64,000 nucleotides of DNA, from positions 2,728,001-2,792,000 of the forward strand of contig NZ_CP033459.1 in assembly GCF_003265305.2 (NCBI RefSeq). The letters are read 5' to 3'. This document shows positions 15,800 to 17,640 of the stretch, one piece after another (the first letter of the stretch is position 1; the number at the start of each line of letters is the position of its first letter). Source of the DNA: Pseudoprevotella muciniphila. GTDB lineage: Bacteria; Bacteroidota; Bacteroidia; Bacteroidales; Bacteroidaceae. A program made the position numbers and the translations under genes. The notes below the pieces were generated by a model that did not search any database, was not told the DNA's origin, and was given only the letters and a program-made list of their open reading frames with translations.

Positions 15800-15800
15800 G

Positions 15801-15930
15801 TTCACGGTGTTCACGGTGTTCACAGTGTTCACAGCGTTCACAGCGTTCACAGTGTTCACAGCGTTCACAGCGTTCACGATGTTCATGCGTTCACGGTGTT
15901 CACATTCCTAAAGCGTGAACGCGTGAACAC
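15801..15930. repeat. Left TTCAC array: about eleven 9-base units ending in a hairpin
   Basis: Units TTCACGGTG, TTCACAGTG, TTCACAGCG and variants follow each other every 9 bases from 15801 to 15903 (one unit is 8 bases). The array ends with the complementary GTGAACGCGTGAAC at 15915-15928, so the terminal units can fold back on it. Bases 15880-15930 are an exact reverse complement of 17552-17602 (51 of 51). There are no unique spacers, so it is not a CRISPR. Frames through it give only low-complexity peptides. Confidence 0.9.
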
Positions 15931-16287: not shown

Positions 16288-16388
16288 CTGTTTATTGGAC
16301 ATCAATAAATTAGGGAATGATAAACGTGTTGTCCCCGATTATGGTATTAATATTCGGCAATTTTTATTAGAAATATCAGGAAAAAGAG

Positions 16389-16396
16389 TATTTTTG
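16389..16396 (+). promoter_or_regulatory. -7 promoter box (TATTTTTG) inside the cassette
   Basis: TAnnTTTG match, 39 bases before the PRTase-like ATG and inside the inverted ends, so the cassette carries its own promoter. Confidence 0.5.
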
Positions 16397-16435
16397 TTTC
16401 GAAAGTTTATAATTATTAGAAAAGTTAGGAGCCAT

Positions 16436-17296
16436 ATGACAAAGAAAATTATTAAATTAACAAAAAGCAAATTGAACGACATAATCAGTGAAGAGGTAAA
16501 AAAGGTACTAAAAGAGGGTATTGATATTGACACTAATTCAACACCACATACGGTTGGCTTTAATCCAAACCATCAAGAATATGTTGATACGAATGACCCT
16601 TGGAATCCTCAACCAATTTACAACAAAGTCAATGGTTATAATGTTATTTCTGTTTTCATGAGGAAGAAAACAAATGACAAATATGATGCAAATCCTTTAT
16701 TAAAGGCATTAAAAGGGCATAAAGATTGGGAACTTAAGAACGAACACTATGACATAATGTCTCTATTACGTAGATTTGTGGCTGTTACAAAAGAATTGAA
16801 TGATAGTTTTGATGTGATAATTACAACTCCGTCAAATAATTCACTTAATAATAGTATATTTAATATAGTTAAAAGAATTATACCTCACTCGACTGCGGTA
16901 AAACATTTCTTTACAAAATATGAGGCTAATTATGTTTTTGACTATATGATAGATGATGACCTTATTGCTCAAATGACTAATACAGAAGAAGAATATAAAA
17001 TTTGTAAAAAAGAAATAGAAAGGTCCATATTGAAAATGAATCGGAAAAACGATGGTATTTTTTCATATAAATACATTGAAGAAAAGTATAGACAATACGT
17101 AATTCAGTCAATGTTTATTTCTGATGAAGTAAAAAGTAATTTGGAATTAGCCAATGATATTAATGGCAAAAGAATACTTGTGCTTGATGACACAGTGACA
17201 AGCGGTAAGACGATATCTGATTCAGCAGAAGCATTGATGGAAACATTTGACCCAAGTGATATAACGTTTCTTACTTTGTTTAGTCCTTTAACTTAA
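16436..17296 (+). CDS. Phosphoribosyltransferase-fold protein carried by the cassette
   Basis: This is a 286-residue protein. The N-terminus has the helix motif IIKLTKSKLNDIISEEVKKV, resembling a module I know from the beginnings of many uncharacterised Bacteroidetes and Bacteroidetes-phage proteins. The C-terminal third carries a PRPP-binding loop, RILVLDDTVTSGKT, with the two acidic residues at 251-252. The middle contains IITTPSNNSLNNSIFN and a Lys/Glu-rich segment. The ATG at 16436 has AGGAG four bases upstream. An earlier GTG at 16268 lies outside the inverted repeat and is rejected. The gene is markedly AT-richer than its neighbours, with many AAA, ATA and TTA codons, a sign of transfer. 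Whether it is a salvage enzyme, a regulator or a phage-defence effector is unknown. Confidence 0.8.
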   Translation: MTKKIIKLTKSKLNDIISEEVKKVLKEGIDIDTNSTPHTVGFNPNHQEYVDTNDPWNPQPIYNKVNGYNVISVFMRKKTNDKYDANPLLKALKGHKDWELKNEHYDIMSLLRRFVAVTKELNDSFDVIITTPSNNSLNNSIFNIVKRIIPHSTAVKHFFTKYEANYVFDYMIDDDLIAQMTNTEEEYKICKKEIERSILKMNRKNDGIFSYKYIEEKYRQYVIQSMFISDEVKSNLELANDINGKRILVLDDTVTSGKTISDSAEALMETFDPSDITFLTLFSPLT

Positions 17297-17551
17297 ATAG
17301 TTTTTGAATAGACGCAAATATAATTGATAACATTAATCGGGGACAACTTGTCTATCATTCCCATAAATTATTATTCTCTTATTGATTCACATGAATTATC
17401 ACTGATACTTTATAGTTTATAGTTTATAGTTTATAGTTGACAGTTTATAGTTGCTGTTCGGCAGTTGTTCACGCTTCAGGTGTATTTGAACACCCAATAT
17501 TATATATAAATATATTGATATTCTGTTTGTTAAGTAGATTTTTTTGTTCAG
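17297..17551. other. Intergenic stretch with a TTTATAG tandem repeat
   Basis: After the cassette's right end there are six 7-base units at 17409-17450 (TTTATAG four times, TTGACAG, TTTATAG), then a small dyad around GTTCACGCTTCAGGTGTATTTGAACACC. No gene is recognised. Confidence 0.6.
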
Positions 17552-17640
17552 GTGTTCACGCGTTCACGCTTTAGGAATGTGAACACCGTGAACGCATGAA
17601 CACCGTGAACGCCATGAACACCGTGAACACCATGAACGCT
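17552..17640. repeat. Right TTCAC array, inverted relative to the left one
   Basis: GTGAAC units at roughly 9-base spacing, read on the - strand as TTCACGGTG and TTCATGGTG variants. The first 51 bases (17552-17602) are the exact reverse complement of 15880-15930; beyond that the two arrays have the same unit but differ in detail. Together they flank the cassette region as a large inverted repeat about 1.6 kb apart. Confidence 0.9.

What the first reader, a model, noticed from the sequence alone, without database searches (positions are those of the whole stretch)
16305..17370. A transposase-less one-gene cassette carrying a PRTase-fold protein
Seen: a 1050-base unit with 29-base inverted ends (26 of 29 match) and a perfect 8-base direct repeat ATAAATTA outside them, i.e. 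the footprint of one transposition event. Its only gene is a 286-residue protein with a PRPP loop (D251-D252-TVTSGKT) and an N-terminal LTKSKLNDII-type helix, with its own promoter box and AGGAG ribosome site. The gene is AT-rich against its surroundings. Inference: a transposon that moves a complete PRTase gene with a transposase supplied from elsewhere. PRTase-fold proteins occur as effectors in some anti-phage systems, so a defence cargo is possible but unproven.
Basis: partly seen in the sequence, partly recalled or inferred. Interest (0 to 1): 0.85.

Follow-up and report, generated by a model that had tools for sequence, protein, structure and literature searches.

The report
Mobile cassette with phage-tagged enzyme gene
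A small mobile DNA cassette in a gut-type bacterium carries one enzyme gene whose front end bears a peptide tag otherwise seen mainly on proteins of bacterial viruses, which suggests a little-noticed family of jumping genes that shuffles proteins those viruses may pack into their heads.

Summary
In detail: 16313-17362 has 26/29 terminal inverted repeats, a perfect 8-bp duplication and one 286-aa gene; a paralogous repeat in the same genome shows the empty site. The parent is found: IS1595-family transposons with related ends in related genomes. One (G161) carries a homologous PRTase, a second cargo gene and the transposase. No IS1595 transposase was detected in the own genome, so this is a transposase-less "mobile insertion cassette". 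The unexpected part is the N-terminus: a ~27-residue peptide (consensus KKxIRLTESDLHRIVKESVNRILxE) heads this PRTase, other cassette cargoes, and 105 distinct proteins in viral contigs; the bodies of 122 tagged proteins fall into 93 clusters. It ends in L/I-x-E, the T4 prohead-protease motif, in 113 of 134 rows, and tagged genes recur in phage head clusters. The closest PRTase (81% identical) is a tagged gene between portal and prohead protease of a T4-like phage. I infer, but have not shown, that the tag is a capsid-targeting propeptide and that these transposons shuffle head-packaged proteins. Defence cargo is not supported.

The parts
16305..16312 (.). Left copy of the 8-bp target duplication ATAAATTA
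16313..16341 (+). Left terminal inverted repeat GGGAATGATAAACGTGTTGTCCCCGATTA, IS1595-type end
   Evidence: related ends
16389..16396 (+). TAnnTTTG-type -7 promoter box (TATTTTTG); the Bacteroidota promoter consensus is recalled, activity not tested
16427..16431 (+). AGGAG ribosome binding site, 4 bases before the ATG
16436..16519 (+). Codons 1-28: phage-type tag MTKKIIKLTKSKLNDIISEEVKKVLKEG, ending in L-K-E followed by G
16436..17296 (+). Gene of the 286-aa tagged PRTase-family protein (P0001), stop included
17174..17212 (+). PRPP-loop codons 247-259 (ILVLDDTVTSGKT)
17334..17362 (-). Right terminal inverted repeat
17363..17370 (.). Right copy of the 8-bp target duplication ATAAATTA

Best explanation
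It is a mobile insertion cassette: a transposase-less derivative of a clade of IS1595-family transposons that live in phages and genomes of Bacteroidales. It moved into an intergenic host repeat with a transposase supplied in trans (shown: ends, target duplication, empty-site paralogue, no IS1595 transposase detected in the own genome; inferred: which element supplied the transposase). Its cargo is a phage-type PRTase-family protein with an exchangeable ~27-residue amphipathic N-terminal tag that ends in a hydrophobic-x-E motif. The most likely role of the tag (inferred) is that of T4 capsid-targeting propeptides: it docks the protein in the prohead core of a T4-like phage, the S77 prohead protease cuts after L/I-x-E, and the mature PRTase stays in the head and enters the next host with the DNA. 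There it would act on PRPP or nucleobases to favour the phage (substrate unknown). On this reading the IS1595 clade shuffles genes for head-packaged proteins between phages and spills copies into host chromosomes; the window copy is such a spill-over. The mobile-cassette part is near certain (about 0.97), the phage origin of the cargo likely (about 0.85), the capsid-targeting role of the tag more likely than not (about 0.6).
For: Mobility: ends, 8-bp duplication, empty site. Parent: G161 element with 25 of 25 matching end bases, duplication AAAATCTA, PRTase homologue, a second tagged gene and an IS1595 transposase (PF12762 143.2 bits, PF12760 28.5 bits). PRTase homologues also lie in cassettes in G066 (62%) and G826 (31%, beside a separate tagged gene). 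Tag census: 19 tag places in 13 of 201 family genomes; 12 of 19 lie between resolved IS1595-type ends, 5 beside an IS1595 transposase or remnant, 2 neither. Of the 10 places not used to build the model the split is 4, 4 and 2. Of the 10 resolved elements 4 carry a transposase and 6 do not; 7 have a perfect 8-bp duplication. Phages: of 79 viral transposase loci kept, 12 have a tagged gene in the fetched stretch, in 9 of them inside a resolved element; these are 12 of the 16 loci at 44% identity or more, and 0 of the 63 below. Tag end L/I-x-E in 113 of 134 rows, strict register; T4 gp21 cuts after L/I-X-E (PMC9026906, passages) and T-even internal proteins are diverse and share only a capsid targeting sequence (PMC3012670, passages). 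Tagged genes sit between portal and S77 protease in four phage stretches; in L273 and L321 a tagged ORF overlaps the S77 ORF by 4 nt. The 81%-identical phage PRTase (L010) lies between T4-type portal and S77 genes. All 14 PRTases of A2 have L/I/V/M-x-E just before the conserved domain. Between the window gene and the L010 gene the tag has 33% identical third codon positions, the body 58-76%, as expected if the tag was exchanged.
Against: No virion proteomics, so packaging and cleavage are unproven. The window tag has LTK where most rows have LTE; 21 of 134 rows lack strict L/I-x-E; the residue after E is not restricted. Lak and most other phage PRTases lack the tag. Only 11 of 57 viral tag stretches held a portal or S77 match, and the four clearest head clusters are near relatives of each other. 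Some tags are internal, in part without a Met, unlike T4. Three of the 10 resolved elements have no duplication. The TIR pattern alone is a weak sign: its reversed control matched in 7 of 399 genomes, and 15 of 20 fetched pattern regions showed neither transposase nor tag. No transposition was observed.
Confidence: 0.6

Rival explanations
1. An ordinary mobile insertion cassette with a PRTase that works in the host cell (salvage, regulation or stress); the N-terminal helix is just a dimerisation or stability element of this protein.
For: The cassette has its own promoter-like box and ribosome site; the PRPP loop is intact; distant PRTase-like relatives exist in bacterial genomes (L007-L009, 23-24%).
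Against: The same helix heads many proteins whose bodies fall into 93 clusters and is absent from 10 of the 14 PRTases aligned; the close relatives found are in phages or cassettes.
Confidence: 0.17
2. The tag is real and phage-related but does another job: binding a common phage partner, a membrane or a replication compartment, without entering the head.
For: Tagged genes also lie far from the head cluster (for example G246 at 8.4 and 80.6 kb); only 11 of 57 viral tag stretches held a portal or S77 match; some tags are internal.
Against: Place of tagged genes between portal and prohead protease, and the L/I-x-E end.
Confidence: 0.18
3. The cassette is an anti-phage device: a chromosomal tagged PRTase is drawn into proheads of an infecting phage and damages it, or acts as a ShosT/PRTase-CE-like toxin.
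For: Weak PADLOC matches to ShosT (20.2 bits) and PsyrT (13.3 bits), weak PRTase-CE match (13 bits, cut-off 27); the G066 cassette lies near an McrB-like gene (by eye).
Against: Single gene without antitoxin or partner; the same gene is kept by phages, in 3 and 4 copies in the two Lak megaphages examined.
Confidence: 0.07

Closest known systems
Mobile insertion cassettes (MIC231 of Bacillus cereus, mic-qnrD; PMC3913671, passages)
   Same: Inverted repeats, target duplication, a passenger gene in place of the transposase, transposase expected in trans
   Different: IS1595-type ends; passenger is a tagged phage-type protein; sister elements carry other genes with the same tag
IS1595 family insertion sequences (PMC8101967, passages; Siguier 2009 seen only as a reference there)
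   Same: 8-bp duplications; the relative P0002 has the DDE_Tnp_IS1595 domain and zinc ribbon
   Different: The paper gives a single transposase gene as usual; here there are one to several cargo genes, and in 6 of 10 resolved bacterial elements no transposase
T4 internal proteins with capsid targeting sequences, and Alt (PMC3012670, PMC9026906, passages)
   Same: Diverse proteins united only by a short N-terminal peptide; cleavage motif L/I-x-E; the L010 phage has portal and S77 protease of T4 type
   Different: The tag is longer (~27 vs ~10 residues) and, as far as I can see by eye, unrelated in sequence; sometimes internal; carried by transposons; packaging not shown
PRTase genes of Prevotella megaphages (Lak-B phages, MK250020 and others)
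   Same: 53-56% identical over 91-95% of the protein; hydrophobic-x-E-G junction in the Lak-type sequences aligned
   Different: Untagged; no matching ends found around the copies examined; several paralogues per genome

Membership tests
Mobile insertion cassette | Bracketed by inverted repeats without a transposase gene | tested here: met
Mobile insertion cassette | Target duplication showing transposition | tested here: met
   ATAAATTA on both sides; empty-site paralogue
Mobile insertion cassette | Mobilised in trans by a transposase of the related IS | not testable with these tools
   only related ends and transposases elsewhere
IS1595 family (autonomous element) | DDE_Tnp_IS1595 transposase inside the element | tested here: not met
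   no transposase in the cassette and no PF12762 match in the own genome; met in the relative P0002, 143.2 bits
IS1595 family (autonomous element) | 8-bp target duplication | tested here: met
   window and 6 of 9 other resolved bacterial elements
Type I phosphoribosyltransferase | PF00156 over cut-off with acidic pair and PRPP loop | tested here: met
   27.8 bits vs 26.3; D251 D252 invariant in 14 sequences. Relatives P0003 (16.5) and P0004 (23.1) are below the cut-off
Type I phosphoribosyltransferase | Fold and enzyme activity | not testable with these tools
   structure machine busy at every attempt; profile match to a solved HPRT over 165-282 (3ohp, E 5.9e-7)
T4-type internal head protein with capsid targeting sequence | Short terminal peptide shared by otherwise unrelated proteins | tested here: met
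   124 distinct tagged proteins; 122 bodies in 93 clusters at E 1e-3. Some tags are internal
T4-type internal head protein with capsid targeting sequence | L/I-x-E cleavage motif at the end of the peptide | tested here: met
   LKE in the window; 113 of 134 rows
T4-type internal head protein with capsid targeting sequence | Encoded by phages with an S77 prohead protease | tested here: inconclusive
T4-type internal head protein with capsid targeting sequence | Present and cleaved in virions | not testable with these tools
   no proteomics available
ShosTA-like toxin-antitoxin | PRTase toxin next to an antitoxin gene | tested here: not met
   single gene in the cassette; ShosT match only 20.2 bits

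The most novel reading that the evidence does not exclude
A clade of IS1595 transposons, resident in large Bacteroidales phages, is specialised in moving genes of head-packaged, injected proteins: each cargo carries the same capsid-targeting, protease-removable tag, so any new cargo is delivered by any phage with the matching prohead core. Host-chromosome copies without transposase, like this one, can feed tagged proteins into passing phages.
Probability: 0.45. Interest if true: 0.92.

Novelty: new variant of a known kind. Interest (0 to 1): 0.75.

Why it matters
If the tag is a capsid-targeting propeptide, the peptide alone would list head-packaged proteins of large uncultured gut and rumen phages, which are otherwise hard to know. 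It would also show a mobile-element route by which phages exchange injected proteins, and offer a short tag for loading proteins into such phages. Either way, one clade of IS1595 transposons is linked to a shared tag on its cargo and to phages; four searches of the held open-access library listed no description of this.

Tried and rejected
Rejected: the larger host repeat as origin of the ends. The 89-nt inverted GTTCAC arrays at 15842-15930 / 17552-17640 are a separate dispersed repeat. In the own genome the unit's DNA matched only itself, and L036 and L039 match the flanks but carry no cassette.

Rejected: transposon ends around the PRTase in phages. In 12 phage loci 9 gave no pair and 3 gave weak pairs (18-20 of 25) without duplication. 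Null test: of 400 random intervals, 82 reached 20 of 25 plus 7 of 8 duplication bases, all inside five listed elements. Without the duplication criterion 176 of 400 had a pair of 20 of 25 or more; 147 of these have IS1595-type ends and all lie in nine elements already listed, 26 lie in L194 (itself such an element), 2 in the window and 1 in L192.

Led nowhere: P0001 in genome contigs gave 0 relatives; plasmids gave 5 Vibrio records at 22%; the IS1595 transposase was not found in L010's contig or two Lak genomes; P0006 and 8 of 10 other cargo proteins had no Pfam match, the other 2 were below cut-off; 15 of the 20 TIR-pattern regions (L103-L109, L111-L118) showed no IS1595 transposase or visible tag. 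The tag in G784 (L327) has no ends or transposase in the fetched 6 kb. Viral transposases L191, L198, L202 and L204 (44-54%) have no tagged gene nearby. In one search the two best PDB matches were designed repeat proteins over 21 residues, which I take as spurious.

Not done: fold and fold search, because structure prediction was busy.

Full report
1. The observation. The unit at 16313-17362 has 29-bp inverted ends matching at 26 positions, found nowhere else in the window and not in 100 shuffles, and an 8-bp duplication ATAAATTA on both sides. It holds one 286-aa gene with ribosome site and a TAnnTTTG-type box, at 29.7% GC against 46.6% in the flanks. In the own genome (one contig of 2.92 Mb) the unit occurs once. 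The site lies in a dispersed intergenic repeat. Copy L036 reads through the junction with one, slightly altered, target copy and copy L039 matches the left flank, so the empty state is visible in the same genome.

2. The parent transposon. In 201 genomes of the family, 6 had a PRTase match at E 1e-5, the own genome included; three of these are distant 23-24% matches (L007-L009). G066 (62% identical) has the gene between related ends, without transposase or duplication. G161 (30%) has a 3.0-kb element with 25 of 25 matching end bases and duplication AAAATCTA; it contains the PRTase homologue, a second gene and a transposase with PF12762 (143.2 bits) and PF12760 (28.5 bits). This is the IS1595 family, whose members are usually flanked by 8-bp duplications (PMC8101967, passages). 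The own genome has no PF12762 match, so a transposase would have to come from outside. A TIR pattern matched 22 of 399 family genomes; its reversed control matched in 7 of 399, and 15 of 20 regions fetched by it showed neither transposase nor tag, so a pattern match alone is not proof.

3. The tag. The N-terminal ~27 residues of the window protein recur at the start of the second G161 cargo and of other cargoes. A 12-row model of this peptide found 19 places in 13 of 201 family genomes. By, 12 of the 19 lie between resolved IS1595-type ends: window; G161 twice; G066:C206; G187; G031:C15 twice; G031:C22:96898; G044; G116; G054; G117. Five lie next to an IS1595 transposase or a remnant: G066:C212, G042 twice (25.6% identity only), G157, and G181 (26-residue fragment only). 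Two have neither (G031:C22:99408, G176). Nine of the 19 places supplied rows of the model and match by construction. The other 10 split as 4 between ends (G044, G116, G054, G117), 4 beside a transposase or remnant (G042 twice, G157, G181) and 2 neither. Among the 10 resolved elements, 4 carry a transposase and 6 do not, and 7 have a perfect 8-bp duplication. The three without one (G066:C206, G054, G117) rest on the sequence of their ends, which fit the IS1595-type start at both sides. In 393 genomes of the order, 3 had the tag at E 1e-6: the own genome, G784 and G826. G826, from another family, has a cassette with ends matching at 24 of 25, reaching the contig end, with a tagged gene and, beside it, an untagged PRTase homologue, 31% identical to the window protein and 58% identical to a sequence also found in Lak phages. 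G784 shows no element in the fetched 6 kb.

4. Phages carry both. The nearest relative found of the window gene is in a 160.5-kb viral contig (81% identical), between genes with PF07230 (T4 portal, 265.9 bits) and PF03420 (S77 prohead protease, 58.2 bits, with an intein-like segment). In 50,697 phage records, 9 matched, all Lak-B Prevotella phages; the two examined have 3 and 4 copies. Of 151 viral stretches with related transposases, 79 loci were kept. Twelve of the 79 (L183-L190, L192-L195) have a tagged gene in the fetched stretch. In 9 it lies inside a resolved element (L189 and L190 give the same ends); in L186 it lies outside the element, in L187 and L193 beside the transposase with ends unresolved. 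By identity, 16 of the 79 are at 44% or more; 12 of these have a tag and L191, L198, L202 and L204 do not; none of the other 63 has one. A DNA pattern for the tag hit 57 viral stretches. From loci L137-L318, 124 distinct tagged proteins were collected, 105 of them from viral contigs; 122 bodies fall into 93 clusters at E 1e-3.

5. What the tag looks like. In 134 tag rows the best conserved residues are L8-T9-E10, L13, E19-S20, V21 and L25-x-E27. In strict register the end is L/I-x-E in 113 of 134 rows (97 of 114 viral, 16 of 20 bacterial). The helical moment is high: 90 of 5000 shuffles reach it for the consensus, 265 of 5000 for the window. T4 gp21 cuts after L/I-X-E (PMC9026906, passages); T-even internal proteins are diverse and share only a capsid targeting sequence (PMC3012670, passages). 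Of 57 viral tag stretches, 11 held a portal or S77 match, the L010 phage included. In eight S77 stretches (L262, L266, L273, L274, L297, L302, L316, L321) tagged genes stand within a few kb of S77. In four (L273, L274, L297, L302) they lie between portal and S77; these four share near-identical neighbours and are not independent. In the other four no portal was in the stretch. In L273 and L321 a tagged ORF overlaps S77 by 4 nt. The identities of the ~525-aa and 678-aa neighbours (core and major capsid protein) are my reading, not a test. S77 was found in 14 of 25 tag-bearing contigs and in 2 of 16 other IS1595-bearing contigs (Fisher p 0.006). Both sets were picked by length from larger lists, the 16 were not scanned whole for tags, and the tagged contigs are longer: at 100 kb or more it is 12 of 18 versus 2 of 5. 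Among 12 PRTase-bearing records, 6 had S77, both Lak genomes included.

6. The PRTase family. In 14 sequences the N-termini differ, but all have L/I/V/M-x-E just before the domain, in 13 followed by G; 9 have L or I at the first position. D251 and D252 are invariant; the loop is degenerate in the G161 copy (TFAQS). Tagged members fall in two separate parts of the tree: window, L052 and L067 (83/89 support), and L068 with untagged L064 (100/99), which fits tag gain or exchange. Between the window gene and the L010 gene, the tag region has 58% nucleotide and 33% third-position identity, the body 81-88% and 58-76%; 27 codons is short, so this is suggestive. By profile the closest plausible solved structures are hypoxanthine PRTases, 3ohp over 165-282 (two better-scoring designed repeat proteins match 21 residues only). 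I infer a PRPP-using enzyme or a binding protein derived from one; the substrate is open.

7. Mechanism proposed. Transposase from a phage-borne or chromosomal IS1595 relative acts on the ends. The cassette inserts with an 8-bp duplication. If expressed during infection by a phage with a matching prohead core, the tag would guide the PRTase into the head and be cut off, and the enzyme would enter the next cell. Only the insertion has direct sequence evidence, and the transposase type follows from related elements; the rest is inference from the tag, its place in head clusters and the T4 precedent.

8. Novelty. Transposase-less cassettes and IS1595 elements are known, and so are capsid targeting sequences. 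The link between one IS1595 clade and a shared tag on cargo was not listed by my searches of the held library, which holds open-access papers only and was asked with few terms. I rate it a new variant of a known kind.

Noticed in passing
window 15800-15930 and 17552-17640: GTTCAC-type 9-bp tandem arrays in inverted orientation (89 nt, 92% complementary) around the insertion; further copies of the repeat at about 563, 1638, 2107 and 2840 kb of the genome.
   Followed up: partly
L010 2976-4169 (-): Prohead protease gene with an intein-like segment (PF14890 27.9 bits, below cut-off), with a treble-clef zinc-finger gene next to it.
   Followed up: no
L040, L041 (Lak-B1, Lak-B5): These Lak megaphages carry 4 and 3 PRTase paralogues; neighbours look like folate and deoxycytidylate enzymes by eye.
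   Followed up: no
L011 5642-6499 (-): The G161 transposon's PRTase has a degenerate PRPP loop (TSGKT to TFAQS), so it may bind rather than catalyse.
   Followed up: no
L175, L176, L182: Cassettes seem to share a further domain upstream of the tag (pattern by eye), in L175 and L176 in one reading frame with it.
   Followed up: no
L328 4202-4711 (-), L186, L283, L291: A second cargo family (tag followed by ELDWKTYA) is shared by a bacterial cassette and phage contigs.
   Followed up: no
L012 8370-11465 (-): The G066 cassette lies near an McrB-like AAA gene and a large neighbour, possibly a restriction system (by eye).
   Followed up: no
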